From Eubacteriaceae bacterium ES3 (GTDB taxonomy: Bacteria; Bacillota; Clostridia; Eubacteriales; Eubacteriaceae), in contig CP130741.1 of NCBI GenBank assembly GCA_030586155.1, positions 3,032,680 to 3,096,679 of the forward strand: a DNA stretch of 64,000 nt, in the 5' to 3' direction. Of the stretch, positions 1 through 12,257 are shown piece after piece. Within the stretch, counting starts at the first letter, position 1. The number at the start of each line of letters is the position of its first letter. Below the pieces are notes generated by a model. That model did no database searches, was not told where the DNA came from, and saw only the letters and a list, made by a program, of their open reading frames with translations. A program made the position numbers and the translations under genes.

Positions 1-251
1 TAGAAACCCGTATCTCCAGATACCACCAGGGCCGTTTTTTTACTCTGATAAACCGAAACAACCCGATCCATTAACGCACTTAGAGAAATCCCTTCGCCAA
101 TATATAAAATCTCTTTGCCTTCTGTAGAAAAACTTTCCGTATGGCGTCTCCCACAAAGAATAACTTGAGCTTCTTCTATTTCTTTTTTAGCGATCGGCAA
201 AATATAATCCGGATGACCCGGTCCCAGACCAATAATTTTCAATTGATACAT
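1..251 (-). CDS. cbiE: Cobalt-precorrin-7 C5-methyltransferase CbiE, N-terminal part (cut by window edge)
   Basis: Reading leftward from ATG at 251, the frame encodes about 83 residues and runs off the window. It opens MYQLKIIGLGPGHPDYILP, the glycine-rich first strand-loop of tetrapyrrole methylases that binds SAM, and later has ALVVSGDTGF, the second conserved loop. Family knowledge: CbiE methylates C5 of the corrin ring in anaerobic B12 synthesis and is often paired or fused with CbiT. The start lies 13 bases inside the end of cbiD, which suggests translational coupling. CbiE rather than another methylase is inferred from its place after cbiD and from the SGDTGF motif. Whether a CbiT domain is fused cannot be seen. 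Confidence 0.85.
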   Translation of the reverse strand, partial: MYQLKIIGLGPGHPDYILPIAKKEIEEAQVILCGRRHTESFSTEGKEILYIGEGISLSALMDRVVSVYQSKKTALVVSGDTGF

Positions 252-1372
252 AAGCTGTCCCTCATTTCAGAAGCGTCCTTACTCTGACCCAGGAAACCCA
301 GTTCCCGGGAGAAAATAATAACTTCAATGTCGATATTGCCATAAACCCGATCAGCAACTCTTCTTTTAACCGCCTCAGCGAGTACATTAAAATAATCAGG
401 TATCTCAGATTTAAGAATTAAATCAGTTGCTTCGTCAGTGGTTTTAGACTCCATAATCGCCTTTAAAAGGTCCTGTTCCCCACCTAATAATCCGGCATAA
501 GCCGTTAAAACTTCCATCCGAGCATCAGCTACATTGCTGTGGGTATTAAATATCCCGCCAGCTACCTTGACTAGTTTACCCAGATGACCGATTAAAAGAA
601 TTTTTTTAATTTCCATCCGTTCTGCTTCATCCAGCATAAACCCAAGATAGTTGCTGGTTTTAATCAAGGCCGATTCCGGAAGATTCAATTCATTTGCAAA
701 ATCTTTTCCGTAATTTCCGGGAACAAAAATAATATGCTCCAGGCCCTTGGCTTTTAATACCGACAACTCAAGTTTTAATGAGGCTTTTAGTGCCTCTTCA
801 CTCATCGGCTCAACAATGCCTGACGTCCCAATAACCGAAAGTCCACCTTCAATCCCAAGTTTTGGATTAAAGGTCCGTTTGGCCAGTTCTACACCCTGAG
901 GAATCGAGATTTCCACATTCCAGCCTTCACTTCCCTGATGGCCGGTTTGAGCCAACACTTCAGCAATAACTTCCCGAATCATCTCCCGGGGAACAGGGTT
1001 AATAGCCGCCTGGCCCACTGGGACGCTTAAGCCCGGCGAAGTCACGGTGCCAACACCCTGGCCTGCAAAAAAGTGTACACCTTCTTCTTTTGCCGGAAAA
1101 ACTCTGGAAAATATTTTTATCCCATTGGTCACATCCGGATCATCCCCGCTGTCTTTAATCACTGAACAGGAGGCTTCATGACTGTCAAAATGCTGATCAT
1201 GAATCAGCAAATCCAGATCCCAGCCTTTGGGCGTTTTTATTAAAACACTCTCCTGCTTATCCTGATTTAAAAACATCAAAAGGGCCGCTTTAGTGGCGGC
1301 CGTTGCACAGGAACCAGTGGTATAACCGTAACGCAAGACTTTTCCGTTCTTTTCAATGGTTTTGTCAAACAT
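239..1372 (-). CDS. cbiD: Cobalt-precorrin-5B C1-methyltransferase CbiD
   Basis: A 377-residue protein of normal length for CbiD, which methylates C1 of cobalt-precorrin-5B in the anaerobic (early cobalt insertion) pathway. The N-terminus has the family signature YGYTTGSCATAATKAAL (about residues 16-32). Further in are glycine-rich segments such as GTSGIVEPMS and a FVPGNYGKDFA stretch typical of the family. It lies between cbiL (4 bases upstream) and cbiE (overlapping downstream), so it belongs to the riboswitch-controlled B12 operon. CbiD is specific to the anaerobic route, so its presence shows which corrin pathway this organism uses. Confidence 0.95.
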   Translation of the reverse strand: MFDKTIEKNGKVLRYGYTTGSCATAATKAALLMFLNQDKQESVLIKTPKGWDLDLLIHDQHFDSHEASCSVIKDSGDDPDVTNGIKIFSRVFPAKEEGVHFFAGQGVGTVTSPGLSVPVGQAAINPVPREMIREVIAEVLAQTGHQGSEGWNVEISIPQGVELAKRTFNPKLGIEGGLSVIGTSGIVEPMSEEALKASLKLELSVLKAKGLEHIIFVPGNYGKDFANELNLPESALIKTSNYLGFMLDEAERMEIKKILLIGHLGKLVKVAGGIFNTHSNVADARMEVLTAYAGLLGGEQDLLKAIMESKTTDEATDLILKSEIPDYFNVLAEAVKRRVADRVYGNIDIEVIIFSRELGFLGQSKDASEMRDSLCIN

Positions 1373-1376
1373 TGGC

Positions 1377-2102
1377 TCAATCCTTAAAAAGAGGATAATC
1401 TTTTTTGATCAGCATTGTTGACAGGTAGGGGATTTTTCCTTTTAAAACATTGATATCCGTAACCACATTCTGGGTTTCCATTCCAATATTGGAAACCAGT
1501 ACAAAAGATTTTTCAAGTCCACGGGCTTCCAGTTCTTCTGCCATCAACTGGTTATTGGCGGAAATTTTCATTACCACGATATTTTTATGCGCATCAAGAA
1601 TCTGTCTGATTTCTTCAATCGGCTGAGTCATTGCCACAACACCTAAAGATTCTTCACCTTGAGTCAGGGGAATGTTTAGCTGAGCCCCCAGATTACAGAA
1701 AGAAGGAATACCTGATAGGGTTACCACTTCGATATCACGTTCTAGCAGAAACTCCATGACATAGGAATAAGTGGAGAAAACCATAGGATCTCCCAACGTA
1801 ATAAATGCAACATCCTTACCCTGATTTAAAAGTTCTTCGATCTCATCGGCATTTTTCTTCCACTGGGCTTCCAAGGTTTCTCGCTCGGCACTTAATGAAA
1901 TCATCGGGAAGTTCATTTCCAGACATTTTGACAAATCCTCAATATGCGGTTTAACAATATTAAAGGCAATACTGTCAGTCCCCATTTTCTTAGTAGGTGT
2001 AATTACCACATCACAGTCTTTAAGCACTCTCGCCGCTTTGACGGTCAACAGATCAGGATCTCCCGGTCCGACACCAATCCCATAAAAAATTCCTTTACTC
2101 AT
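1377..2102 (-). CDS. cbiL: Cobalt-precorrin-2 C20-methyltransferase CbiL
   Basis: A tetrapyrrole methylase of 241 residues from the ATG at 2102. The start was chosen because the SAM-binding motif GIGVGPGDPDLLTVKAA follows within a few residues. A longer in-frame reading from 2141 would only add a tail overlapping cbiC. Other conserved parts are VAFITLGDPMVFSTYSYV (about residues 87-104) and VVTLSGIPSFCNLG. The spacing and the GDPMVFSTY motif fit the CbiL/CobI branch, which adds the C20 methyl to (cobalt-)factor II or precorrin-2. It is the fourth gene of the visible cob operon, just after cbiC. Assignment to CbiL over other methylases rests on these motifs. Confidence 0.9.
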   Translation of the reverse strand: MSKGIFYGIGVGPGDPDLLTVKAARVLKDCDVVITPTKKMGTDSIAFNIVKPHIEDLSKCLEMNFPMISLSAERETLEAQWKKNADEIEELLNQGKDVAFITLGDPMVFSTYSYVMEFLLERDIEVVTLSGIPSFCNLGAQLNIPLTQGEESLGVVAMTQPIEEIRQILDAHKNIVVMKISANNQLMAEELEARGLEKSFVLVSNIGMETQNVVTDINVLKGKIPYLSTMLIKKDYPLFKD

Positions 2103-2106
2103 CAAT

Positions 2107-2736
2107 CTACCATTCCCTTCCCAGTTGATACAGCATGGCATTTAAAATCGCTGCAACTACCGGACTGCCACCTTTTCGTCCGTTAATGCGCACATAAGGG
2201 CTGTCAATAGCATCCAGTGCCTGCTTTGATTCCGCTGCACCAACAAAACCAATTGGCGCACCAATAATCAGGTCTGGTTTGGCACTACCCGATTTAATAG
2301 CCTCAATTAAAGTATAAAGTGCTGTTGGGGCATTGCCGATTGCAAAAATTCCCACCGACTCATCTGCCAGGGCTTTTTGAATAGCCACTGTTGAACGGGT
2401 TACACCCCGCTCCTTAGCTTCTTTCATCACTTCGGGTTCGTGAACATAATTGACAATTTCAATCCCGTGATCTGCAAGAGCTTTTTTATTAACGCCAACC
2501 TGAATCATTCGCGTATCGGCATAGATTTTCTTGCCTTTTTTGAGCGCTTCCATTCCTTTAGCATAGCCGTCATTACAGAATTCTAAAAGATCTGCATACT
2601 CAAAATCAGCGGTTGTATGAATGATTCGCTTAACAATTGGGGCAATATCATCGGGAAATACCTTATCTCCCAATTCTTCGGTAATAATTTCAAAACTGCG
2701 TTCTTCAATTTCTCTCGGATTATTAATATATTCCAT
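2107..2736 (-). CDS. cbiC: Cobalt-precorrin-8 methylmutase CbiC
   Basis: A 209-residue protein matching the CbiC/CobH family in length and motifs. It moves the C11 methyl to C12, giving cobyrinate. The family histidine that acts as acid/base is seen in RIIHTTADFEYADLL (about residues 38-52), and the tail carries GAPIGFVGAAESK and RGTKGGSP-like RINGRKGGSPVVAAILNA. It sits 17 bases after the pduX-like gene and 4 bases before cbiL, in the same minus-strand operon. A ribosome binding site AAGGAG lies just upstream of its ATG. Confidence 0.94.
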   Translation of the reverse strand: MEYINNPREIEERSFEIITEELGDKVFPDDIAPIVKRIIHTTADFEYADLLEFCNDGYAKGMEALKKGKKIYADTRMIQVGVNKKALADHGIEIVNYVHEPEVMKEAKERGVTRSTVAIQKALADESVGIFAIGNAPTALYTLIEAIKSGSAKPDLIIGAPIGFVGAAESKQALDAIDSPYVRINGRKGGSPVVAAILNAMLYQLGREW

Positions 2737-2753
2737 TTTAGTCTCCTTAAATT

Positions 2754-3668
2754 TTAACTGGACTGCTGATTCAAACAGAACTGTCGAGCATCACTGCAGT
2801 CAATTTCAATACCGCCACCAATCAGGCGATTTTCAAAAACACCGGTATAGTCTTCTGTCGGCAAACGTTTTTTAACACCTTCTAAAAACAATACCTTGTC
2901 AAAAGCGTTTTCTTCGTACATCACGCCAATTACTGTCCCGCTATGGCCGATCACCGTTCCCAGCCCACCGCATTCTTCCATCAGATCCACCATCAGATCC
3001 AAATGCTTTTTGGGCAGCCGCTTCTGGTTCAAATAAGCACTCAAAGTACAGGCTCTGCCTATTTTTTTCAAATCATTATCAGCAAGTCCCTGTTCAAACT
3101 CACTGATAATTTTTCTAAAAATACCCAAATCTTTCTGCGAATAATCGTCCTGGGATTCATTGAAAGTCATGGTGTCAATCCCACCACAAAAATCAACAAT
3201 CATCAAGTTCGCTTCGATCAGGCCATCAAGTTCTTTTAGCACCTGACCCGTTATATGATTAAATAAATTTAGCTTCTCGAACATCAAATTGTCTGAAGGC
3301 TCTATTTCCGCACATAATCGACCAATATCTATTGACTTTAAACCCAGATCATAATAAGCTGACAAACCTGCCGCGACTCCGGACAGATCAGCTGTCGAAC
3401 TTGCCATTCCTTTTTTCTCCGGGATCTGGCTCTGATGGGTGATCATCAGTCGTTCCCACTGGTTTCTGGCAATTCCATAACGCTCAAAAATCAGTCTGGC
3501 CATTTTCTGGGCTTTAAACTTCAGATTACTGTTTCTGAATTCACCCGCTTCGATGGTAATTGTTGAATACCGGTCAATCGGGCTGGAAATTAAACAGGGA
3601 CTGCCCTCAAACCAGCCCTGAATATATTCACCGCAAGTTCCCGGGCTTTTAACAATCACCTTTTTCAT
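2754..3668 (-). CDS. pduX: GHMP-family kinase, probable L-threonine kinase (PduX-like) for cobalamin side chain
   Basis: A 304-residue GHMP kinase. The N-terminus VKSPGTCGEYIQGWFEG and the ATP-loop PEKKGMASSTADLSGVAAGL (about residues 86-105) are the two recognisable family blocks; a C-terminal GLGTVIGHSGTVIGVM block follows. Known PduX phosphorylates L-threonine, which is then decarboxylated by CobD to (R)-1-aminopropan-2-ol phosphate, the linker of the B12 nucleotide loop. Its ATG overlaps the cbiA stop (ATGA), so the two are translationally coupled. The PduX role is inferred from the operon and the PGTCGEY motif; homoserine kinase is a less likely alternative. Confidence 0.82.
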   Translation of the reverse strand: MKKVIVKSPGTCGEYIQGWFEGSPCLISSPIDRYSTITIEAGEFRNSNLKFKAQKMARLIFERYGIARNQWERLMITHQSQIPEKKGMASSTADLSGVAAGLSAYYDLGLKSIDIGRLCAEIEPSDNLMFEKLNLFNHITGQVLKELDGLIEANLMIVDFCGGIDTMTFNESQDDYSQKDLGIFRKIISEFEQGLADNDLKKIGRACTLSAYLNQKRLPKKHLDLMVDLMEECGGLGTVIGHSGTVIGVMYEENAFDKVLFLEGVKKRLPTEDYTGVFENRLIGGGIEIDCSDARQFCLNQQSS

Positions 3669-5029
3669 TGTGTAGCCTCCCGATGATTTTTTACAACGCT
3701 CAAAAGAGCCTCCAAAAATTTAGGGTTACTGTAAAAATGAATGTGGGGATAACCGGCCAGAACATTATTTTGGGTATAGCCACAGGTCCATGTTTTTCCA
3801 CGTTTGGAAATGACATAGGCGGTCTGCAGCTCTTCTTCCGATTCAATCAGGCTGTGATGAAACTCGTGCCCTCTGCTCTCGATTGACTGACCACCTATAA
3901 AAGCACAAAGATCCACATAGCCAAAACGCTGCAGCTTTTTAGTCATTTTCGCCTGTGCCTTTAGAAAACCCACCATCTCAAAAGACTGGCCTTCATTATT
4001 AGTAATTCTTTCAGTCAGGTACATTAACCCACCGCATTCTGCATAGCAGGGCAGTCCCGCCTCCAGTTTTTTACGGATATCTTCAAGCATTGAAGTATTT
4101 TTCTCCAGCTCCTTAGCAAAAATTTCCGGGAATCCACCGCCAATATAAAGACCATCCAGACCTTGCGGCAAACATTTATCATTAATCGGACTAAACTCTA
4201 CCAGCGAAACGCCAGCATTTTCTAAGGCTCTTAAATTATCATCATAATAAAAGTTGAAGGCCCGATCTCGCGGAATTCCAATCTTTAGCCCTTTATATGT
4301 TTCATTTAAACGCAAAAAAGGATCGGGCCGATTTGGTTTTCGTACTGGACGTTCACTGATTTCCAGCAGTTTATCTAAATCAATGGTTTTTTCAGCAATT
4401 TCGGCCGCCTTCTCAACTTTTTCACGAAACCCCTCAAGCTCCTCAACCGGAACAAGTCCTAAATGTCTACTGTCCATAATAATTTCCGGTGTTTCTGGGA
4501 AATAGCCCAGACAAGTCACCGGATTGTAAGCTTCAATCATTTCTTTCAAAAGCTGATAATGGGATTCTGATGAAATACGATTGATAATAACCCCTTTAAT
4601 GTTGACGTCGGGATCAAAATCCATATAGCCCTTGACCAGGGCCGCTGCCGATTTAGCCATCCCGCGACCGTTGATTATTAAAATAACCGGTGCATCGACA
4701 AGCTTAGACAAATAAGCCGAACTTCCCTTCTCGGACTCCAGCCGATTGCCATCGTACAAACCCATAACGCCTTCAAGTACGCCGACATCATTCTCTTCCA
4801 TGCGCCGGTCAAAAAGCTGTCTGACAACTTCTTCACTCAGCATCCAGGTATCCAGATTGATCGAATCCTCTCCGGTCACAAAACGGTGAAACATCGGATC
4901 GATATAGTCCGGTCCGGTTTTAAAAGGTTTCACTTTTAATTTTCTGTTTTTCAGGGCACCCATGATCCCCATGGTCACCGTGGTTTTACCCACATTGCTG
5001 CTGATCCCTGCCAGCATAAAATAATTCAC
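3665..5029 (-). CDS. cbiA: Cobyrinate a,c-diamide synthase CbiA
   Basis: CbiA amidates the a and c side chains of cobyrinate with glutamine and ATP. The N-terminal dethiobiotin-synthetase-like half has the P-loop GISSNVGKTTVTMG (about residues 8-21), followed by KTGPDYIDPMFH. The C-terminal glutaminase half has LYIGGGFPE and the nucleophile motif CYAECGGLMYL near residue 330. The start is the GTG at 5029, preceded by AAGGAGG at 8 bases. An upstream in-frame extension to 5065 runs into the riboswitch terminator and is rejected, giving 454 residues. It is the first gene of the B12 operon. Confidence 0.94.
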   Translation of the reverse strand: MNYFMLAGISSNVGKTTVTMGIMGALKNRKLKVKPFKTGPDYIDPMFHRFVTGEDSINLDTWMLSEEVVRQLFDRRMEENDVGVLEGVMGLYDGNRLESEKGSSAYLSKLVDAPVILIINGRGMAKSAAALVKGYMDFDPDVNIKGVIINRISSESHYQLLKEMIEAYNPVTCLGYFPETPEIIMDSRHLGLVPVEELEGFREKVEKAAEIAEKTIDLDKLLEISERPVRKPNRPDPFLRLNETYKGLKIGIPRDRAFNFYYDDNLRALENAGVSLVEFSPINDKCLPQGLDGLYIGGGFPEIFAKELEKNTSMLEDIRKKLEAGLPCYAECGGLMYLTERITNNEGQSFEMVGFLKAQAKMTKKLQRFGYVDLCAFIGGQSIESRGHEFHHSLIESEEELQTAYVISKRGKTWTCGYTQNNVLAGYPHIHFYSNPKFLEALLSVVKNHREATQ

Positions 5030-5063
5030 ATTCCGTCCCTCCTTTAGTGACTCTATAAGGACC

Positions 5064-5095
5064 AAACAAAAGTCCAGCTTCTGGGAAGCTGGACT
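5064..5095 (-). terminator. Intrinsic terminator of the B12 riboswitch (expression platform)
   Basis: Minus strand: AGTCCAGCTT pairs with AAGCTGGACT around a short loop, and TTTTGTTT follows. It lies between the cobalamin aptamer and the cbiA ribosome binding site, so it is the off-state hairpin. A TTAAAC/GTTTAA pairing just upstream could form an antiterminator. Confidence 0.88.
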
Positions 5096-5097
5096 TA

Positions 5098-5268
5098 AAC
5101 TTTGTTTAACAGGCTTCTTCCCTCCGAAGAAAATTACGATCTGAGTTTCCTGACTTTTGCTTCATCCTCTGCTTTTCCTTCCCATCCTAAGACAGTGGCT
5201 TATAAAAACTTCGTCTGCAATTACAGTAGCGGGGGCTGTAGGGCTTTTCACCCTTTTCCTCAATACAT
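5098..5268 (-). promoter_or_regulatory. Cobalamin (B12) riboswitch aptamer
   Basis: The minus strand shows the conserved blocks of the cobalamin riboswitch in order: GGGTGAAAAGCCC, then CCCCCGCTACTGTAA, then AGCCACTG followed by GGATGGGAAGG, and AGTCAGGAAACT near the 3' side. These match the family's core and B12-box elements. It precedes a terminator and the cob operon, so cobalamin binding should stop transcription of cbiA and the genes after it. Confidence 0.95.
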
Positions 5269-5285
5269 TATTAAATTATTTTTAA

Positions 5286-5314
5286 AGTTTACCATAATTT
5301 CAGAGCGATTTCAA
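5286..5314 (-). promoter_or_regulatory. Promoter of the cob operon
   Basis: On the minus strand, TTGAAA is separated by 17 bases from TAAACT, with a TG one base before the -10 (extended -10). It ends about 18 bases upstream of the riboswitch start and lies just after the stop of the upstream gene. Confidence 0.65.
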
Positions 5315-5318
5315 TTTA

Positions 5319-6104
5319 TTATTTCCATTCCTTTTTAGTGCTCAAACTTTCGCGAACAGAAGAAGTAAAAGCAAGGGGATCTTGACCCTGCCATTTTTCG
5401 CTGGCAATCACTTCATAAGAAATCGTCTCAATGCTTTGGACGCTAAAAATTTCCGGCATAATCTCATCAAAGGGGATCAAACCTTCCCCCGGAATCCAAT
5501 GTCGATCTTTTAAAAAATCGTTATCCGATAGATGCAGGGCTTTAATTCTTTCCTTATGTTTTCGCAGAATTTTCCCGCAATTCTCTTCCTCCAAAAAATC
5601 GTGCGAACTGTCATAACACATTCCAAAACGGAGGGCATCTATTTCTTCCAGCAAAAAGTCAAGCAGATACTGTCTTGATACATTTTCCACTGCCAGATTA
5701 ATGCCATATTTTTCGGCAGTATCCGCCAGTTCAGAGAAAAACGCCCGCCCCTTGTCCAGGTCCGGTGTAAAATCATCCAAATCATTGGTATGAACAACTA
5801 TTGTTGGGATATCGAAGTCATAACAATCTTTGATAAAGCCCTGAAACTGCCGAACTTTAGGTGTGATTTCCATTCTTGACGCTTCCCAAATATCATTATA
5901 GCCCATAAAAGGGGCATGGATATTGGTAATTTCCAGTCCCAATTTTCTGACAATCTCAGGAAATTCCTCTTTCTCAAGGGCCCACGGTTCAAATTCATCT
6001 TCCCATGAGATCATCGCCGCGTCAAAACCGCCTTCAGCAATCATTTTAATGCGTTCTTCAAAAGGCATAAAAAAACCAAACCAGGAAAACATACTGTATT
6101 TCAT
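5319..6104 (-). CDS. Sugar phosphate isomerase/epimerase-like TIM-barrel protein
   Basis: A 261-residue protein of the xylose-isomerase-like TIM-barrel (AP endonuclease 2) superfamily. Conserved pieces are ITNIHAPF, IVVHTNDL, NLAVENVS, CYDSSHDFLEEEN and ALHLSDND, which supply the Glu, Asp and His ligands expected for a divalent metal site. The start is the ATG at 6104, preceded by AAAGAGG; an in-frame extension to 6185 would cross a terminator hairpin. It follows mtnP-mtnA on the same strand but lies behind a terminator, so a link to methylthioribose metabolism is possible but unproven. The substrate is unknown. Confidence 0.78.
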   Translation of the reverse strand: MKYSMFSWFGFFMPFEERIKMIAEGGFDAAMISWEDEFEPWALEKEEFPEIVRKLGLEITNIHAPFMGYNDIWEASRMEITPKVRQFQGFIKDCYDFDIPTIVVHTNDLDDFTPDLDKGRAFFSELADTAEKYGINLAVENVSRQYLLDFLLEEIDALRFGMCYDSSHDFLEEENCGKILRKHKERIKALHLSDNDFLKDRHWIPGEGLIPFDEIMPEIFSVQSIETISYEVIASEKWQGQDPLAFTSSVRESLSTKKEWK

Positions 6105-6125
6105 CGCTAATACCTCTTTATAATT

Positions 6126-6176
6126 AAATAAAACCCGGTTAAAGACACTCAAGTTAACTTGGGTCCATAACCGGGT
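6126..6176 (-). terminator. Intrinsic terminator after mtnA
   Basis: Minus strand ACCCGGTTA pairs with TAACCGGGT, followed by TTTTATTT. The enclosed part contains a second small hairpin, CAAGTTAACTTG. It lies 50 bases after the mtnA stop and before the next gene's ribosome binding site. Confidence 0.72.
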
Positions 6177-6228
6177 CCACGTCATGACACTGTTTCACTT
6201 TGAGAAGTATCGTAACTTTAACTTCTCA

Positions 6229-7257
6229 TTATTTCAATTTTTTGATATTAATATCATACGGTGGATAAACCACGCCTTTTTCAGTAATAATTGCCGTCAC
6301 ATTCTGATGAGGGGTTACATCAAAGGCCGGATTTTCCATTCTAATTCCATCTGGAGCAACCTGCACTTCACCAACATGGCTGATCTCACGGGTACTGCGT
6401 TCTTCGATAATGATTTCATCGCCGGATTCAATTGAAAAATCTATGGTTGATGTGGGAGCTGCCACATACATGGGAATCCCATGGGCTTTTGCCAAAACTG
6501 AAACTGAGTAAGTCCCGATCTTATTGGCTACATCTCCATTTGAAGCAATCCTGTCAGCACCAACTACAACACCATCGATTTTCCCCTGTTTCATCATCCA
6601 ACCGGCCATATTATCGGTAATCAGAGTGACCGGAATATCATCAGCATGAAGTTCATATGCAGTTAGTCTGGCTCCCTGCAAAAACGGTCTGGTTTCATCA
6701 GCATAAACAGAAATTTCTTTTCCCTGTTCATGGGCTGCCCGAATCACACCCAAGGCTGTTCCATAGTCTGCCGTGGCCAGTGCGCCCGCATTACAATGGG
6801 TTAAAATCGTATCGCCCTGATGAATCAGCTCAGCCCCAAAGGCGCCCATGTCACGACACATCTGAATATCTTCTGCACAAATATTATGCGCCTCTTCTTT
6901 AAGAAGAGCTGTAATCTCAATCGGAGATAGTGCTTCATTTTTCTTAATGACCTTTTCCATTCGGTCAATCGCCCAGAACAGATTAACTGCTGTTGGCCTG
7001 GTCGAAGCCAGTAGGCCGGCAACTTTTTTCATTTCTGCCAAAAATTCCTGACTTGTTTCATTCTCATATTCTTTTGCGCCAAAATACATCCCATAACCGG
7101 CGGTCACACCGATGGCCGGAGCGCCTCTGACAATCATATCAACGATCGCTTTTGCAATCTCCCGATAATCGGTATAAGTTCTGATGATAAATTCAGTTGG
7201 AAGCCTGGTCTGGTCAATCAGTTTGAGGGATTCATCTTCAAAATATACTGGTTTCAC
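6229..7257 (-). CDS. mtnA: S-methyl-5-thioribose-1-phosphate isomerase MtnA
   Basis: MtnA converts methylthioribose 1-phosphate to methylthioribulose 1-phosphate. Seen: IVRGAPAIGVTAGYGM (about residues 41-56), the catalytic cysteine in THCNAGALATADYGT, and the catalytic aspartate in VVGADRIASNGDVANKIGT. The start is taken as GTG at 7257, preceded by GAGGG six bases upstream, giving VKPVYFEDESLKLIDQ and 342 residues, the usual length. A TTG at 7278 is the alternative but lies inside mtnP. Only one base separates it from the mtnP stop. Some relatives act on 5-deoxyribose 1-phosphate, which cannot be told apart here. Confidence 0.92.
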   Translation of the reverse strand: MKPVYFEDESLKLIDQTRLPTEFIIRTYTDYREIAKAIVDMIVRGAPAIGVTAGYGMYFGAKEYENETSQEFLAEMKKVAGLLASTRPTAVNLFWAIDRMEKVIKKNEALSPIEITALLKEEAHNICAEDIQMCRDMGAFGAELIHQGDTILTHCNAGALATADYGTALGVIRAAHEQGKEISVYADETRPFLQGARLTAYELHADDIPVTLITDNMAGWMMKQGKIDGVVVGADRIASNGDVANKIGTYSVSVLAKAHGIPMYVAAPTSTIDFSIESGDEIIIEERSTREISHVGEVQVAPDGIRMENPAFDVTPHQNVTAIITEKGVVYPPYDINIKKLK

Positions 7258-7258
7258 A

Positions 7259-8014
7259 TTAACCCTCAATCTTTTCAATCAAATTAAAAATCAGTTTTTT
7301 AACTTTTTCTGAGTTTTCATGCAAAACACGAACCACATCTTCATTGGTTACCGGCTTAATCTCCGGGTGGACTTCCAGTCCCGCATCATAATCGGTAATC
7401 AGCGCGATATTCACCACTGGAATTTCCTGTTCCAGACAAAGATATCCTTCGGGATACTGGGTCATATTGACCACATCAGCACCCATCATGGCAAACATCC
7501 GGCTTTCTGCTACTGTAGAAAAACGCGGTCCGTTAATAACTACTACCGTTCCGCCATCATGAACAGAAATTCCACATTCTTTAGCTGATGCAATGGCTTT
7601 TTCCCGCAGATTCTGATCGTAGGGATGGGCCGAACTCAGGTGGTTAACCTTGGGTTTTTCAAAGAAGGTATCTTTTCGCCCGGAGGTCATATTGATAAAC
7701 TGATCGGTTATCACAAAATCTCCCGGCTTCATTTCAAAACGCAGACTGCCTACACAACAAGGAGAAATCAGCGCCCTAATCCCCAGCATTTTCATGGCAT
7801 AGATATTGGCCCGATAATTTATCTCTGATGGATTAAGAATATGATCCTTGTGATGTCGCGGCAGAAAAGCAATGGTTTTTTCCCCAACCTTGACCAGGCT
7901 TATTTCATCCGATGGTTTTCCGTAAGGGGTATCCACTTCAATCTTTTTTACATCAGGATACAGTTCATATAAACCCGATCCGCCAATTACACCAATATCT
8001 GCTGAATAATACAT
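7259..8014 (-). CDS. mtnP: S-methyl-5'-thioadenosine phosphorylase
   Basis: A 251-residue purine nucleoside phosphorylase-fold enzyme that splits methylthioadenosine with phosphate to adenine and methylthioribose 1-phosphate, the MtnA substrate. Motifs seen: IGVIGGSGLYEL at the N-terminus, the phosphate-site FLPRHHKDH, and the active site INGPRFSTVAESRMF with NMTQYPE, and TDYDAG near the C-terminus. The gene is followed immediately by mtnA. The window also has a hydrolytic MTA/SAH nucleosidase at 20479-21186, so two routes of MTA breakdown coexist. Confidence 0.92.
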   Translation of the reverse strand: MYYSADIGVIGGSGLYELYPDVKKIEVDTPYGKPSDEISLVKVGEKTIAFLPRHHKDHILNPSEINYRANIYAMKMLGIRALISPCCVGSLRFEMKPGDFVITDQFINMTSGRKDTFFEKPKVNHLSSAHPYDQNLREKAIASAKECGISVHDGGTVVVINGPRFSTVAESRMFAMMGADVVNMTQYPEGYLCLEQEIPVVNIALITDYDAGLEVHPEIKPVTNEDVVRVLHENSEKVKKLIFNLIEKIEG

Positions 8015-8037
8015 ATTTCTCCTCCTTAGGTTTCCTT

Positions 8038-9570
8038 TTATTCTTCAATGACTAATGATGCAAGACTTGATTTTGTCACAATTTTCTCTTCATCTTCGTC
8101 CACTTTACCTTTGAAGCCCAGCCATTTATACTTGCTGTCATCCTCTTCCACAGGTGTTTCTACTGCTTTAGGTGATTCCATTTCAGACGTTTCTGTTTTT
8201 ATCGTCTCACCCGTTGCTGCCGCTTTAACCAAATCTGAAATAGTCTTTTCCAGTGATGGAGCCGTTTTTCTAACAACTTTGACTTCTTCCGGAGCTGCTG
8301 CTTTTTCAACCACCGACTCGACAATTTTCTCTTCCGTAGCAGGTTCACTGACCACCGATTCAATAGTAGTCTGCTCGATGGCAACAGCTGGTTCATCTGA
8401 AGGTTCTACTACTTCAGGCTCTAACGCGGCTTCTTTTTCAGTCTCACTTTCCGGATCATCCCCTTCCAGAATCAGTTCCGACATTTTGGGGATGGGGCGC
8501 TTGGGCATTTCGTCAAAGTCATCGACATTGCCTTTAAAACCCAGCCACTTATATTTCGAATCATCTTCCTCTTCTACTATCGGATTGGCCTCCACTATCT
8601 CAACTTCCTCAACCACTTCTGTGATCTCTTCAGCTACTTCGGGAATTTCAGCTTTTGTAGTGAGTTCTTCCACCACTTCTGCCGGTAATTCAACCTCAGG
8701 CTTTTCCGCTTCCTCCCCCTGAATCGTAACTGTCCAGCCTTTTTTCATCGGCGGTTCGCCTTCTTCACGCTCAGCCTTAAAGCCGACCCAGCTTTTCTGC
8801 GGCTGATAAGGTGGAATTTCCTCATCGATAATCCGATTTATTGCTTTGCTTGCCTGGGCAGTACCATGCAGCGTTTCTGACGGCATAATCTTTTCCGATG
8901 TATGAAATTCCTTTTGAGCCATCAGTGGATTTTTTCTTTCCCATGATTTCTTTTTGTCCGGGAAATATTTTTTAAGCACCTCTTTAGGGATCTCTTCATT
9001 ACACAGTATTGCCGAAACTGAAGTCAGTATTTCCGGCAACCGCTGATTTTCAGGCCATTTTGTCGACATTCCGACCTCATATTTGACCAGATCCACCACA
9101 TTAAAGCCCAATGATTCCAGCGAAAAACGCATAAGTTTGGGAAAACGACAGGGCTGGCCACTTTTTCGCGCGCATTCCATCCCCTGGACCTGGCATACCG
9201 GGCAAGACCCGGGAATCAATCCCATCACGCCTTCAACTTCATTCTCGATTTCCAGCAGAGTCTGCCAGGTCATCACTTTAATGGCTTCCATCTTTTCCGT
9301 ACAATAATCAGAAATCGCTTTCGGATCGCGAATCAGACGAATATCATTACGGGGTACCTCATACTGTCTACCGATAATATGCATATATTTAAATTGTTTT
9401 AAAAAAAGTTCTTCATCAAACTGATATGGCGGGCATGACCAGATCTTGCTGTAATTAGGACACGCTTTACAAAAACCAAGTGTTTTGTCGCGATCAAAAT
9501 ACTCTTCCATTAACCGGTCAATACTGATTGCGCCAAAGCTGAGTTTATTCTTAAGTTCCATCATTTTCAT
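8038..9570 (-). CDS. DUF2284 metal-binding protein with a repetitive acidic C-terminal tail
   Basis: The first ~200 residues match DUF2284, a predicted metal-binding domain of anaerobes. Cysteines 34, 37 and 46 are in LGFCKACPNYSKIWSCPPYQ, and a second cluster is GSCPVCQVQGMECARKSGQPC. The remaining ~300 residues are low in complexity and rich in Glu, Val and Pro. They are punctuated by three aromatic motifs: KSWVGFKAE near 260, KYKWLGFKG near 340 and KYKWLGFKG near 480. Usual DUF2284 proteins end after the first domain, so the tail is an unusual addition. It lies 23 bases upstream of mtnP on the same strand. Function unknown; the tail may be a docking or scaffold region (inference). Confidence 0.8.
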   Translation of the reverse strand: MKMMELKNKLSFGAISIDRLMEEYFDRDKTLGFCKACPNYSKIWSCPPYQFDEELFLKQFKYMHIIGRQYEVPRNDIRLIRDPKAISDYCTEKMEAIKVMTWQTLLEIENEVEGVMGLIPGSCPVCQVQGMECARKSGQPCRFPKLMRFSLESLGFNVVDLVKYEVGMSTKWPENQRLPEILTSVSAILCNEEIPKEVLKKYFPDKKKSWERKNPLMAQKEFHTSEKIMPSETLHGTAQASKAINRIIDEEIPPYQPQKSWVGFKAEREEGEPPMKKGWTVTIQGEEAEKPEVELPAEVVEELTTKAEIPEVAEEITEVVEEVEIVEANPIVEEEDDSKYKWLGFKGNVDDFDEMPKRPIPKMSELILEGDDPESETEKEAALEPEVVEPSDEPAVAIEQTTIESVVSEPATEEKIVESVVEKAAAPEEVKVVRKTAPSLEKTISDLVKAAATGETIKTETSEMESPKAVETPVEEDDSKYKWLGFKGKVDEDEEKIVTKSSLASLVIEE

Positions 9571-9799
9571 CCCTTCATCGGTTTTATCAGAAACCCTTAA
9601 GTTACTGATAACAATGGATAGACCTCGCCTAATTATCCATTCTTTCTTATTCTACATCGATTTCAATTTTACATCAATTAAACTTTTTGTCTAACTATGA
9701 TATTTTTCCTGTTTTTTCTTATATGTCAAAATATTACCTGTTTTTTTAAGTTTAATACGGTTATAATTAAAAGAGTAATTTTTTGAAGGGAGATTATGA

Positions 9800-10492
9800 A
9801 TGGAATATTCTCATGAAGTAAAACGAATGTGTGTCGTCGGCAACAATGCTAAACATGGCGCTGCTCCTATACCCGAAGAAGGAAAATGGGTACAGGCCAA
9901 GGAGGTTACTGATATCTCCGGTCTGACACACGGGATTGGCTGGTGCGCACCTCAGCAGGGAGCCTGCAAATTAACATTAAATGTCAAAGACGGAATCATT
10001 GAAGAATGTCTAATTGAAACCATTGGATGTTCAGGAATGACTCATTCAGCTTCTATGGCCTCAGAAATTCTACCGGGAAAAACCATTTTGGAAGCATTAA
10101 ATACTGACCTGGTCTGTGATGCCATTAACACAGCAATGCGGGAATTATTTCTGCAAATCGTTTATGGACGTTCACAAACTGCTTTCTCTGAAGGTGGCCT
10201 GCCGATTGGAGCTGGTCTTGAAGATCTTGGAAAAGGACTCCGCAGCCAGGTTGGGACCACTTATGGCACCCTTGAAAAAGGCCCCCGTTACCTTGATATT
10301 GCCGAAGGTTATATTAAAGAACTGGCCTTAAATGAAAATAACGAAATTATTGGCTATTCCTTTGTTCATCTTGGAAAAATGATGGAGAACATCAAAAAAG
10401 GTGACACGCCAGCCGATGCCCTGGAAAAAGCTTCCGGACAGTACGGCCAATTTGATGATGCAGTAAAATACATCGATCCACGAAACGAATAG
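9800..10492 (+). CDS. NifU/IscU-like iron-sulfur cluster assembly scaffold protein
   Basis: A 230-residue protein with a NifU N-terminal-like fold. LTLNVKDGIIEECLIETIG leads into GCSGMTHSASMASEILPGK (C77), which resembles the GC..a.asSsm segment of IscU/NifU. Other cysteines are C11, C49, C56, C70 and C106. The C-terminal ~70 residues have no recognised motif. The start is the ATG at 9800, with AAGGGAG seven bases upstream; a TATAAT lies at 9762-9767. It is followed 9 bases later by the GGGtGRT gene. Unlike true scaffolds it has no cysteine desulfurase neighbour, so a role in ordinary cluster assembly is uncertain. Confidence 0.8.
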   Translation: MEYSHEVKRMCVVGNNAKHGAAPIPEEGKWVQAKEVTDISGLTHGIGWCAPQQGACKLTLNVKDGIIEECLIETIGCSGMTHSASMASEILPGKTILEALNTDLVCDAINTAMRELFLQIVYGRSQTAFSEGGLPIGAGLEDLGKGLRSQVGTTYGTLEKGPRYLDIAEGYIKELALNENNEIIGYSFVHLGKMMENIKKGDTPADALEKASGQYGQFDDAVKYIDPRNE

Positions 10493-10501
10493 GAGGAAGA
10501 C

Positions 10502-11500
10502 ATGGCATTATTTGAAAGTTATGAAAGACGAATTGATAAAATAGGATCTGTCTTATCCGCAAACGGCATTGCTTCCCTGGAAGAAGCAAAATCTATCTGC
10601 GACGAAAAAGGCATTGATGTCGCTGAACTTGTCAAAAGCATTCAGCCCATTTGTTTTGAAAACGCCTGCTGGGCCTATACTTTAGGTGCTGCCCTGGCCA
10701 TTAAACGGGGAATCACTAACGCCGCCGACGCCGCTGAAGTAATCGGTGAAGGCCTGCAGGCATTCTGTATCCCTGGCTCAGTTGCCGAACAGCGAAAAGT
10801 TGGTTTAGGCCATGGAAATCTTGGCGCCATGCTTTTAAGAGACGAAACGGAATGTTTTGCCTTCCTGGCTGGTCACGAATCCTTTGCTGCTGCTGAAGGC
10901 GCCATTGGGATTGCCCGTTCAGCCAACAAAGTCAGAAAGCAGCCACTGCGGGTTATTTTAAATGGCCTTGGTAAAGATGCCGCTCTGATTATCTCTCGTA
11001 TCAACGGTTTTACTTATGTAAAAACCGACTATGATTACGCAACTGGCGAATTAAAAATTGTCAGCAAAACGCCTTATTCGAAAGGTGAAAGAGCTGCTGT
11101 CAACTGCTACGGCTGTAACGATGTTCAGGAAGGTGTTGCCATCATGCATCATGAAGGCGTTCACGTTTCTATTACTGGAAACTCAACCAACCCTACCCGT
11201 TTCCAGCATCCAGTTGCCGGCACTTATAAAAAAGAAGCTCTGGAACAGGGCAAAAAATACTTCTCTGTTGCTTCCGGCGGTGGAACCGGACGAACCCTGC
11301 ATCCAGACAACATGGCCGCTGGTCCAGCTTCGTACGGTATGACCGATACTATGGGCCGTATGCACTCTGATGCTCAGTTTGCCGGTTCATCTTCTGTTCC
11401 TGCCCACGTTGAAATGATGGGCTTAATCGGAATGGGTAACAACCCCATGGTAGGTGCGACTGTATCTGTTGCCGTTGCGATCGAGGAAGCAAGCAAGTAG
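10502..11500 (+). CDS. GGGtGRT family protein (function unknown)
   Basis: A 332-residue soluble protein carrying the name-giving motif VASGGGTGRTLHPDNMA (about residues 257-273), followed by SYGMTDTMGRMHSDAQFAG. Also notable are VGLGHGNLGAMLL, FLAGHESFAAAEGAIG and the cysteine pair VNCYGCNDVQEG. This family occurs in anaerobic bacteria directly after a NifU-like protein, as here (9-base gap, AGGAGG site at 10491-10496). No signal peptide or membrane segment is seen. No biochemical function is known to me. The glycine-rich loops suggest a phosphate or nucleotide ligand, which is only a guess. Confidence 0.88.
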   Translation: MALFESYERRIDKIGSVLSANGIASLEEAKSICDEKGIDVAELVKSIQPICFENACWAYTLGAALAIKRGITNAADAAEVIGEGLQAFCIPGSVAEQRKVGLGHGNLGAMLLRDETECFAFLAGHESFAAAEGAIGIARSANKVRKQPLRVILNGLGKDAALIISRINGFTYVKTDYDYATGELKIVSKTPYSKGERAAVNCYGCNDVQEGVAIMHHEGVHVSITGNSTNPTRFQHPVAGTYKKEALEQGKKYFSVASGGGTGRTLHPDNMAAGPASYGMTDTMGRMHSDAQFAGSSSVPAHVEMMGLIGMGNNPMVGATVSVAVAIEEASK

Positions 11501-11573
11501 GTTATAGCCCGAGCTTTCGCATTAAAAGGCCATTTCAGGTTAGAACAATTTGCATCATTTTTAGCACATATTC

Positions 11574-11617
11574 AAAACATAAGAAGCCCCTTTTTATTCT
11601 GGGGTTTCTTATGTTTT
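11574..11617 (+). terminator. Intrinsic terminator after the GGGtGRT gene
   Basis: AAAACATAAGAAGCCCC pairs with GGGGTTTCTTATGTTTT around a 10-base loop. The stem is long and AT-rich at its foot, so it may work in either direction. It lies 73 bases after the stop codon. Confidence 0.8.
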
Positions 11618-11646
11618 AAATCAACACACTTTCCAGGAGGACAGGT

Positions 11647-11733
11647 ATGAACACAACAATGCTGATCGTTTTCTTCGCAATTATTTCTGGAGTTTTTATC
11701 CCTATTCTTTACAATAATAAAAATAGAAAATAA
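11647..11733 (+). CDS. 28-residue single-span membrane microprotein
   Basis: A short frame with a strong site CCAGGAGGACAGGT ending at its ATG. It encodes a polar start (MNTTM), one hydrophobic stretch LIVFFAIISGVFIPILY long enough to cross the membrane once, and a basic tail NNKNRK. It lies between two strong terminators (11574-11617 and 11745-11785), 147 bases after the GGGtGRT gene. It is either expressed by read-through of the first hairpin or from its own weak promoter. No homologue is recognised. The good ribosome site, the membrane-segment composition and the bounded unit support a real gene. Confidence 0.55.
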   Translation: MNTTMLIVFFAIISGVFIPILYNNKNRK

Positions 11734-11744
11734 TTTTTCATAAT

Positions 11745-11785
11745 AAAAGGTCAGGAGACGTAACGTTCCTGACCTTTTTATTTTC
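11745..11785 (+). terminator. Intrinsic terminator after the microprotein
   Basis: AAAAGGTCAGGA pairs with TCCTGACCTTTT around a 10-base loop, followed by TTATTTT. It begins 12 bases after the microprotein stop. Confidence 0.85.
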
Positions 11786-11866
11786 AAAACCTTATCTTTA
11801 CCGCACAGTTTTTAAACAACTTAAACCGATGAAGCTAGTTGTGACGCATTTTCTTGACGAGTCCTT

Positions 11867-12082
11867 CTATTCCAATTCAAACATTTGTCGATATTTTTTC
11901 AATAGAGTATTAACCTTATTTTTTTCAGTAACTACAACATTGAAGTCCTGATATTTATTATCTTTCTTGAATATCATATTAAATCCAGTATCCGGATTTT
12001 TATTGCCGTAACTATTGGACCTCACTTCAACACAATTGTAACCAGTATTTAATAACTTTTCGATCATATCTATGTTAATCAT
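11867..12082 (-). CDS. Hypothetical protein, 71 residues
   Basis: Starts at the ATG at 12082, with ATAGGAG seven bases upstream; an in-frame extension to 12118 has no site. The product begins MINIDMIEKLLNTGYNCVEV and is mixed polar/charged with no signal peptide, membrane span or cysteine pair. Charged residues cluster in the C-terminal half (KKDNKYQDF, EKNKVNTLLKKY). It stands alone on the minus strand between the microprotein unit and the TPR/DUF4125 pair. No family recognised; the ribosome site and the 71-codon frame are the main support. Confidence 0.5.
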   Translation of the reverse strand: MINIDMIEKLLNTGYNCVEVRSNSYGNKNPDTGFNMIFKKDNKYQDFNVVVTEKNKVNTLLKKYRQMFELE

Positions 12083-12161
12083 AATCACTCCTATTGCAGA
12101 ATAATTATCATTATACACCTTTATGTTCTTATTTTCAATGTGTAAAAATTAGTTTACACAT

Positions 12162-12183
12162 AAAAAGCACCCCGAAGGATGGC
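12162..12183 (-). terminator. Intrinsic terminator after the TPR/DUF4125 operon
   Basis: Minus strand CATCC-TTCG-GGGTG hairpin with a UUCG tetraloop, followed by CTTTTTATG. It lies about 75 bases after the DUF4125 stop. The stem is short, so strength is moderate. Confidence 0.55.
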
Positions 12184-12257
12184 GAAACAAAAAATTGCAG
12201 CGAAAGCTCACTCTCCAATCGACTTTTTCATGGGCAATCTGGCGACCTTCCTCACCC

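What the first reader, a model, noticed from the sequence alone, without database searches (positions are those of the whole stretch)
9800..11785. NifU-like scaffold, GGGtGRT protein and a 28-residue membrane microprotein as one locus
Seen: two tightly spaced genes (9 bases), then a terminator, a microprotein with a strong ribosome site, and a second terminator. Known: the GGGtGRT family recurs beside NifU-like proteins in anaerobes without an assigned function. Inference: the scaffold delivers a cluster or other cofactor to the GGGtGRT protein, and the microprotein may tether or regulate it at the membrane. No desulfurase (IscS/NifS) is nearby, so this is not ordinary Fe-S assembly.
Basis: partly seen in the sequence, partly recalled or inferred. 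Interest (0 to 1): 0.78.

Follow-up and report, generated by a model that had tools for sequence, protein, structure and literature searches.

The report
Likely missing enolase of gut anaerobes
Two neighbouring genes of unknown function most likely make an iron-sulfur version of enolase, a near-universal sugar-burning enzyme, which would explain how many gut and rumen bacteria live without the ordinary one.

Summary
The gene pair is real (NifU-like 9800-10492, GGGtGRT 10502-11500); the microprotein is not part of it (no match in 18 congeners). The evidence points to a non-homologous, probably [4Fe-4S]-dependent ENOLASE, not cofactor delivery. (1) The pair stays together in 125 of 128 loci; the other 3 are cut by contig ends. 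(2) Among 398 genomes of the phylum, ordinary enolase is missing from 11 of 29 with GGGtGRT and 14 of 369 without (p=1e-7). (3) In two enolase-less genomes of one family the operon reads gap-pgk-tpi-pgm-NifU-like-GGGtGRT: the pair sits where eno is expected. (4) In seven loci from several phyla a fluoride riboswitch precedes the pair, in six with exporter-type genes; fluoride is the classic enolase inhibitor. (5) Published data show opposite iron responses: GGGtGRT/NifU high with iron, enolase high without, in Clostridium pasteurianum (protein) and Bacteroides thetaiotaomicron (RNA; enolase row not significant alone). (6) The NifU-like protein has exactly three invariant cysteines (121 of 121), an aconitase-like pattern. 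'Missing enolase' in Butyrivibrio, Oscillibacter and others is an open question in print. No activity has been measured; the window's own genome also has ordinary enolase.

The parts
9762..9767 (+). TATAAT -10 box of the pair, 32 nt before the start codon; the leader is too short for a 64-nt fluoride riboswitch
   Evidence: Kept in all 18 same-genus upstream regions aligned, own included; promoter role is inference
9786..9793 (+). Ribosome-binding site GAAGGGAG of the NifU-like gene
   Evidence: Sequence; kept in the 18 aligned regions
9800..10492 (+). NifU-like subunit, 230 aa: IscU-fold half plus a family-specific C-terminal half; proposed [4Fe-4S] subunit
   Evidence: PF01592 23.2 bits; model matches IscU structures, best E 5e-5, TM-score 0.29 by query and 0.50 by target
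9944..9946 (+). Codon of Cys49, invariant; proposed cluster ligand
   Evidence: 121 of 121 distinct sequences; ligand role inferred
10028..10030 (+). Codon of Cys77, invariant; aligned with the second IscU cysteine
   Evidence: 121 of 121; aligned with own-genome NifU
10115..10117 (+). Codon of Cys106, invariant; proposed third ligand
   Evidence: 121 of 121; ligand role inferred
10502..11500 (+). GGGtGRT protein, 332 aa; proposed substrate-binding and catalytic partner of the enolase
   Evidence: PF14057 644 bits; 108 positions at least 99.5% identical over 129 distinct sequences
11276..11296 (+). GGGTGRT motif (residues 259-265), proposed phosphate-binding loop; it opens the low-confidence stretch 259-298 of the model, which is among the most conserved parts
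   Evidence: phosphate binding is inference
11574..11617 (+). Hairpin, probable terminator of the two-gene operon
   Evidence: z -5.5 against shuffles

Best explanation
[quoted passage not shown] Proposed mechanism (inferred): the NifU-like subunit keeps a [4Fe-4S] cluster on Cys49, Cys77 and Cys106. The fourth, open iron acts as the Lewis acid that takes the 3-hydroxyl of 2-phosphoglycerate, as in aconitase-type hydro-lyases. GGGtGRT holds the phosphate with its GGGTGRT loop and supplies the base from its invariant His/Lys/Asp/Glu residues. Without the magnesium ions of ordinary enolase the enzyme should escape magnesium-fluoride-phosphate inhibition, so some fluoride-stressed bacteria switch it on by riboswitch. 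Needing iron, it is exchanged for ordinary enolase when iron is scarce. In iron-rich anoxic niches ordinary enolase was lost repeatedly. In the window's organism both enzymes are encoded, so there the pair would be the iron-replete or fluoride-tolerant isozyme. The confidence given is for enolase activity of the pair, whichever protein carries the cluster; the full mechanism is rated in the section on the most novel reading. I lowered it from 0.83 to 0.81 after checking that both operon-slot genomes and nine of the eleven pgm neighbours belong to one family.
For: SHOWN HERE. Gene content: 398 genomes of the phylum: GGGtGRT in 29, PF00113 enolase in 373; enolase missing from 11 of 29 GGGtGRT+ and 14 of 369 GGGtGRT-, Fisher p 9.6e-8; at >=90% completeness and <=5% contamination 9 of 27 vs 7 of 329, p 1.7e-7. 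Counting three GGGtGRT- genomes with only weak matches (G050, G175, G211) as lacking still gives p 4e-7. Second phylum, order of an Alistipes MAG: 5 of 36 vs 6 of 162, p 0.03. The preceding step is kept: cofactor-independent phosphoglycerate mutase (PF06415) in 17 of 18 enolase-less GGGtGRT+ genomes, vs 5 of 17 of the 20 enolase-less GGGtGRT- ones. Operon slot: gap-pgk-tpi-pgm-NifU-like-GGGtGRT, one strand, in two enolase-less genomes of family f40 (L162, L163). Fluoride: riboswitch RF01734 ahead of the pair on its strand in 7 of 31 pair loci scanned, a set partly chosen for CrcB; CrcB in 8 and DUF190 in 6 of 109 flanks. Exactly three invariant Cys. FROM PAPERS: C. pasteurianum proteome: enolase 4.1/4.8-fold higher without iron, GGGtGRT 7.1 and NifU-like 2.4/3.7 higher with iron, early phase (PMC5395762). 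B. thetaiotaomicron at low iron: BT0173-74 -11 to -12.8 (P printed 0); eno row BT4570-72 +2.0 to 7.7 (P 0.144) (PMC10434189).
Against: No enolase activity has been shown for the pair. Most GGGtGRT+ genomes also keep ordinary enolase (18 of 29 in the phylum sample; 31 of 36 Bacteroidales; 38 of 59 named genomes), the window's genome included. Some genomes lack both (14 of 369; 6 of 162). Many genomes are drafts or MAGs, so single absences are uncertain. Genomes of one family are not independent: four of the 11 phylum cases are family f4, two f40; the operon slot and nine of eleven pgm neighbours are f40. No background rate was computed for the neighbour counts. Only one type of phosphoglycerate mutase was searched; pyruvate kinase was not searched systematically. 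B. proteoclasticus B316 extracts showed only a very low enolase level (PMC2914790); whether B316 has the pair was not tested, and the passages I saw do not say that extracts were kept anoxic. The GGGtGRT model matches no solved fold at E<=0.001, so the active site is unsupported by structure. The [4Fe-4S] type rests on cysteine conservation and iron regulation only. The window's locus itself shows neither the fluoride nor the glycolytic context.
Confidence: 0.81

Rival explanations
1. GGGtGRT alone is the enolase, and the NifU-like protein is a dedicated scaffold that builds and hands over its cluster: the first reader's delivery idea with the client's reaction now named. (This odds figure lies inside the 0.81 for enolase activity.)
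For: The NifU-like half has the IscU fold and a similar cysteine order; the two are separate chains.
Against: It lacks the LPxxK sequence and the Asp after the first active-site Cys that the genome's own NifU proteins have (alignment uncertain there, and their roles in cluster hand-over are recalled). It is tied to a single partner in 125 of 128 loci. GGGtGRT has no invariant Cys to receive a cluster.
Confidence: 0.13
2. The pair is not an enolase but protects or supplements lower glycolysis under fluoride, for example by repairing a metabolite or by a bypass from 2-phosphoglycerate to pyruvate.
For: Fluoride operons and co-existence with enolase in most genomes.
Against: A protector of enolase has no job where enolase is absent (11 of 29). 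The pair directly follows pgm in two such genomes.
Confidence: 0.1
3. The pair stores or traffics iron-sulfur; the links to enolase and fluoride are coincidental.
For: High with iron, low without; an IscU-like fold.
Against: Does not explain the glycolytic operon slot, the enolase absences or the fluoride riboswitches.
Confidence: 0.04
4. The three-gene system of the first reader: scaffold, client and membrane microprotein.
For: The microprotein has a strong ribosome site between two hairpins.
Against: No counterpart in the 18 congeners searched.
Confidence: 0.01

Closest known systems
Canonical enolase (PF03952/PF00113)
   Same: Proposed reaction; position after pgm in a glycolytic operon (two genomes); fluoride connection; enolase absent more often where the pair is present; opposite iron response.
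   Different: No Pfam similarity; two chains instead of one; conserved Cys and iron regulation instead of the magnesium of the known enzyme (recalled).
IscU/NifU Fe-S scaffold (PF01592)
   Same: IscU fold over about residues 41-122 and cysteines in similar order.
   Different: No LPxxK and no Asp after the first active-site Cys, a family-specific C-terminal half, one fixed partner, no desulfurase in its operon.
[4Fe-4S] hydro-lyases (aconitase, class I fumarase, serine dehydratase; recalled)
   Same: Proposed chemistry: dehydration by a cluster held by three Cys with one open iron; iron-dependent abundance alongside aconitase in C. pasteurianum.
   Different: No sequence relation found; the cluster would be carried by an IscU-type fold.
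GGGtGRT family PF14057
   Same: The window protein is a full-length member, 644 bits.
   Different: The library entry names the motif only; this report proposes a function.

Membership tests
GGGtGRT protein family PF14057 | Full-length match with the GGGtGRT motif | tested here: met
   644 bits, profile 1-327 of 327
Canonical enolase superfamily | PF00113/PF03952 match | tested here: not met
   Neither protein matches at E<=1. So it is not a member; it is proposed to work like one
Enolase by function (EC 4.2.1.11) | Converts 2-phosphoglycerate to PEP | not testable with these tools
   Only indirect: gene content, operon slot, regulation
IscU/NifU scaffold | IscU fold | tested here: met
   Foldseek best E 5e-5 to IscU entries, modest TM-scores, model pTM 0.48; PF01592 just above cut-off
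IscU/NifU scaffold | LPxxK motif and Asp after the first active-site Cys (roles recalled) | tested here: not met
   Absent from the 12 NifU-like sequences aligned with the two own-genome NifU proteins
IscU/NifU scaffold | NCBIfam equivalog cut-off | tested here: not met
   28.7 bits vs 187.9 for NifU_clost; 22.5 vs 192.4 for iscU
Aconitase-type [4Fe-4S] hydro-lyase (mechanism) | Three conserved cysteines for the cluster | tested here: met
   Exactly C49, C77, C106 in 121 of 121 distinct sequences; C56 in 119 of 121
Aconitase-type [4Fe-4S] hydro-lyase (mechanism) | Cluster with an open iron that binds substrate | not testable with these tools
   Needs spectroscopy
Fluoride regulon | Fluoride riboswitch or exporter at the locus | tested here: not met
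   No riboswitch in the window at 9500-12200 (leader too short); met in relatives L129, L159, L160, L161, L165, L169, L170

The most novel reading that the evidence does not exclude
An IscU-type scaffold has been turned into a permanent catalytic subunit. With GGGtGRT it forms the first enolase unrelated to the universal one: iron-sulfur dependent, fluoride-proof and switched by iron. It replaced ordinary enolase independently in several lineages of gut, rumen and sediment bacteria, and it fills the 'missing enolase' gap reported in 2010.
Probability: 0.67. Interest if true: 0.97.

Novelty: categorically new. Interest (0 to 1): 0.94.

Why it matters
[quoted passage not shown] also PMC3558957, PMC2914790, PMC11026938, PMC11257099, PMC11187502; passages seen). 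Hungate1000 compared enolase-positive and -negative Butyrivibrio for a complementing gain of function and reported no substantial insight. If the pair is present in both classes (not tested in Butyrivibrio here), that comparison could not have revealed it. A named candidate makes the question testable with two genes. It would also give a function to a protein seen in a rumen metaproteome (PMC7035244), explain a fluoride-regulon gene, and reveal an iron-for-magnesium isozyme switch in central metabolism.

Tried and rejected
Microprotein as part of the system: rejected; DNA searches of 11500-11800 in the plasmid and phage collections found nothing.

Rfam at E<=5 over 9500-12200: ten matches, each below its gathering score, no fluoride riboswitch. 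A regex scan for fluoride riboswitches gave many chance hits and was not used; only cmscan hits are counted. L145 has a riboswitch about 2.5 kb downstream of the pair, not counted as leading it.

Fold search for GGGtGRT: no match at E<=0.001; the top rows are phosphofructokinases at E 0.02, TM-score about 0.25, not used. The NifU-like model is poor overall (pLDDT 72, pTM 0.48); only its IscU-like half is interpreted.

Own genome for a fluoride riboswitch: none, but only 120 of 406 candidates were scored. CrcB in the own genome was not searched.

Not-in-print check: searched open-licence PubMed Central only (no bioRxiv, most subscription journals missing). Of the 17 papers with 'GGGtGRT' I saw passages of four; the other 13 as a listing only. 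In the listings and passages I saw, no paper links GGGtGRT or its NifU-like partner with enolase function or fluoride. Two papers list GGGtGRT and enolase in separate rows of iron tables (PMC5395762, PMC10434189).

Not examined: the Fisher tests use all genomes of each draw, but five of the 25 enolase-less rows were not shown (two are known; three GGGtGRT- ones stay unseen and were not searched for phosphoglycerate mutase). 59 of the 80 named GGGtGRT+ genomes were examined for enolase (21 lack it); 21 were not, because of caps. Structure alignments used 58 of 80 (GGGtGRT) and 50 of 80 (NifU-like) named relatives.

Report check (and re-reading): corrected the pair count in the genus (18 of 19 NifU-like, one cut), the number of short NifU-like frames (four), the family bias of the pgm neighbours and operon-slot genomes, and the riboswitch count.
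Full report
THE OBSERVATION. The window is part of a 3.39-Mb single-contig genome (window = C1:3032680-3096679), which I take from gene content to be near Acetobacterium (recalled; no tool named it). At 9800-10492 lies a NifU-like gene, 9 nt later a GGGtGRT gene at 10502-11500, then a hairpin, a 28-codon ORF with a good ribosome site, and a second hairpin. GGGtGRT matches PF14057 over its full length at 644 bits; the NifU-like protein barely passes PF01592 (23.2 bits, cut-off 22) and falls far short of the NCBIfam NifU/IscU cut-offs.

THE MICROPROTEIN DROPS OUT. GGGtGRT is in 19 of 19 same-genus genomes, own included; the NifU-like gene is upstream in 18 and cut off by the contig end in one. 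The 28-residue frame gave no match in the 18 other genus loci (L018 holds only 187 bases downstream) and only chance-level matches elsewhere in those 18 genomes, five of which are 81-87% complete (best E 0.10). The nearest relative, with GGGtGRT 98.5% identical, has different DNA downstream.

THE PAIR IS ONE UNIT. I looked at 128 loci: 19 genus, 29 phylum and 80 named genomes, whose record titles name Clostridia and other Bacillota, Treponema, Akkermansia, Alistipes, Geobacter, Collinsella, Victivallis and others. A NifU-like frame lies upstream of GGGtGRT in 125; the three exceptions (L007, L080, L086) have 1 to 120 bases before a contig end, and in four (L056, L118, L132, L134) the frame is short. 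GGGtGRT is very conserved: 108 positions are at least 99.5% identical over 129 distinct sequences.

FIRST CLUE: FLUORIDE. Some loci carry CrcB/Fluc fluoride channels near the pair: 8 of 109 flanks, DUF190 in 6 (the 29 phylum loci have only about 1.5 kb of flank; Pfam examples). cmscan found fluoride riboswitches (RF01734) ahead of the pair on its strand in seven loci: L161, L160, L159 and L165 (three of these first seen as L066, L068 and L109), L129, and Vibrio sp. THAF191d L169 and Persicobacter psychrovividus L170. In L160, L161, L129 and L169 no gene lies between riboswitch and NifU-like gene. In L159 a TauE-like gene intervenes, in L165 several genes including CrcB and DUF190, in L170 a CLC channel gene (whether it is the fluoride-specific kind was not tested) and then 470 nt, so the last two may not be one transcript. 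In all 31 pair loci were scanned, partly chosen because CrcB was seen, so 7 of 31 is not an unbiased rate. For scale, a search of 30 GGGtGRT+ genomes, also partly chosen for CrcB, gave 23 riboswitch matches, 19 above the cut-off: under one per genome, so such placing by chance would be rare. [quoted passage not shown]

SECOND CLUE: LOWER GLYCOLYSIS. In 11 of 109 flanks phosphoglycerate mutase lies upstream on the same strand; in nine it is next to the NifU-like gene, and all nine belong to one family (f40). The other two (L135, L143) leave a gap of roughly 0.6-0.8 kb. Pyruvate kinase occurs in 4 flanks (two f40, one opposite strand, one 6.5 kb away) and enolase in 4 (two on the opposite strand, one 6.3 kb away). 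No background rate was computed. The clue suggested the test of whether these genomes have enolase at all.

THE GENE-CONTENT TEST. Of 56 genomes first tried, 13 lack PF00113 enolase; all 13 carry GGGtGRT (13 of 42 with it, 0 of 14 without). In the 398 genomes of the phylum (same handles), 25 lack enolase: 11 of 29 GGGtGRT+ and 14 of 369 GGGtGRT- (Fisher p 9.6e-8). With completeness >=90% and contamination <=5% it is 9 of 27 vs 7 of 329 (p 1.7e-7). Three GGGtGRT- genomes counted as having enolase have only weak matches (G050, G175, G211); counted as lacking, the tests give p 4e-7 and 3e-7. Every enolase-less genome of >=99% completeness whose row I could see (G160, G240, G264, G415, G336, G379, G398; G398 is one contig) carries GGGtGRT; three enolase-less rows were never shown. 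The 11 cases fall in seven families (four in f4, two in f40), so they are unlikely to be one event, but they are not independent within a family, and two (G127, G143) are 81-83% complete. In Bacteroidales (198 genomes of unknown completeness) it is 5 of 36 vs 6 of 162 (p 0.03): weaker, same direction. Of 59 named GGGtGRT+ genomes examined, 21 lack enolase; many are MAGs of unknown completeness, but the isolates Oscillibacter valericigenes An890, Oscillibacter sp. 1-3 and Suipraeoptans intestinalis are among them. My samples hold far more enolase-less genomes than the <0.5% reported for isolates (PMC6118326), as expected where MAGs are included.

THE STEP BEFORE ENOLASE IS KEPT. Cofactor-independent phosphoglycerate mutase, which makes enolase's substrate, is present in 17 of 18 enolase-less GGGtGRT+ genomes (the exception is 83% complete) and in 5 of the 17 examined of 20 enolase-less GGGtGRT- genomes, one of these by a weak fragment. 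The other type of mutase was not searched. In two enolase-less genomes the operon reads gap-pgk-tpi-pgm-NifU-like-GGGtGRT: L162 (G336; 569-6933, plus strand) and L163 (G379; 10499-4123, minus strand), with Pfam confirming all four glycolytic enzymes in both (gap of L163 is cut by the fetched stretch). Both belong to family f40. In many bacteria eno ends this operon (recalled). The window's own genome has gap-pgk-tpi-pgm (L167) with no enolase directly after it, and enolase elsewhere (C1:298038-298898).

PUBLISHED EXPRESSION. Clostridium pasteurianum 2-D gels (PMC5395762, one section with its Table 2 read): enolase is higher without iron (4.1 and 4.8-fold early; 4.0 and 1.8 late), GGGtGRT higher with iron (7.1 early, 2.2 late), NifU-like higher with iron (2.4 and 3.7 early; 1.6 and 2.9 late), in step with aconitase, hydrogenase and pyruvate:ferredoxin oxidoreductase. 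B. thetaiotaomicron RNA (PMC10434189, passages): under iron depletion BT0173-74 fall 11- to 12.8-fold (P printed 0), the operon BT1658-60 with a phosphoglycerate mutase rises 15- to 24-fold (P printed 0), and the row with eno (BT4570-72) rises 2.0- to 7.7-fold with P 0.144, so that last point is suggestive only. In the passages I saw the authors do not connect these rows; they mention the NifU gene under nitrogen metabolism. GGGtGRT of Pseudobutyrivibrio ruminis is among the changing rumen proteins (PMC7035244, passages); one P. ruminis strain, AD2017, is reported to lack enolase, while most sequenced Pseudobutyrivibrio have it (PMC7523725, passages).

THE OPEN QUESTION. Kelly et al. 2010 (PMC2914790, passages) reported no enolase gene and only a very low activity in Butyrivibrio proteoclasticus. 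[quoted passage not shown] Hungate1000 (PMC6118326, passages) found enolase missing in about half of Butyrivibrio and saw no substantial sign of a complementing function. Later papers call the gap unresolved (PMC11026938; PMC11257099; PMC11187502; PMC6912079, reports 18 Butyrivibrio genomes without it; passages only).

MECHANISM. Shown: the model of the NifU-like N-terminal half matches the IscU fold (best E 5e-5, modest TM-score); exactly three cysteines are invariant, C49, C77 and C106 (121 of 121), with C56 in 119 of 121; GGGtGRT has no invariant Cys and four invariant His, H104, H125, H236 and H302 (129 of 129); LPxxK and the Asp after the first active-site Cys of the own-genome NifU proteins are absent (local alignment uncertain). 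Inferred: a [4Fe-4S] cluster stays on the NifU-like subunit with one open iron that removes the 3-hydroxyl of 2-phosphoglycerate; GGGtGRT binds phosphate by the GGGTGRT loop and supplies the base. The stretch 259-298, among the most conserved, is the least confident part of the model, as expected of a loop ordered only by partner, cluster or substrate. Fluoride insensitivity follows if no magnesium is used; it is a prediction. In the window no riboswitch fits between the -10 box and the start codon, so iron or another signal, not a fluoride riboswitch, should control this copy.

VERDICT. The pair is most likely an unrecognised, non-homologous, iron-sulfur enolase. The family names are known; the function, if confirmed, is of a new kind. 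It is not a member of the enolase superfamily and fails two of three tests for an ordinary scaffold.

Noticed in passing
11647-11733 with hairpins 11574-11617 and 11745-11778: 28-codon ORF for a single hydrophobic stretch with a basic tail, matched only in this genome among 19 of the genus; a promoter-like site lies on the minus strand at 11741-11714. Could be a small toxin-like or spurious frame.
   Followed up: partly
5319-8014 (-): Sugar-isomerase-like (PF01261), IF-2B/MtnA-like (PF01008) and nucleoside-phosphorylase (PF01048) genes in a row; looks like methylthioadenosine salvage.
   Followed up: no
8038-9570 (-): DUF2284 metal-binding protein with a long acidic tail holding repeats of the type KYKWLGFKG; divergent from the pair across a conserved intergenic region.
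   Followed up: no
L167 (own genome C1:989500-999500): gap-pgk-tpi-pgm operon without eno directly after it, followed by what looks like a membrane pyrophosphatase gene (by eye).
   Followed up: partly
L064 and L070 (genome G225): One genome with two GGGtGRT copies, the second divergent (526 bits, motif GGGIGRT), and no enolase found.
   Followed up: no
L171 Collinsella aerofaciens, 1-5993: The pair lies downstream of SufD, SufS and SufU genes, with a transposase gene between; a possible link to Fe-S assembly in that species.
   Followed up: no
L164 (G606), 2661-8821: NifU-like and GGGtGRT followed by a histidine-phosphatase gene, with enolase and, by eye, DUF190 and CrcB genes on the opposite strand: both enolase types at one locus.
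   Followed up: partly
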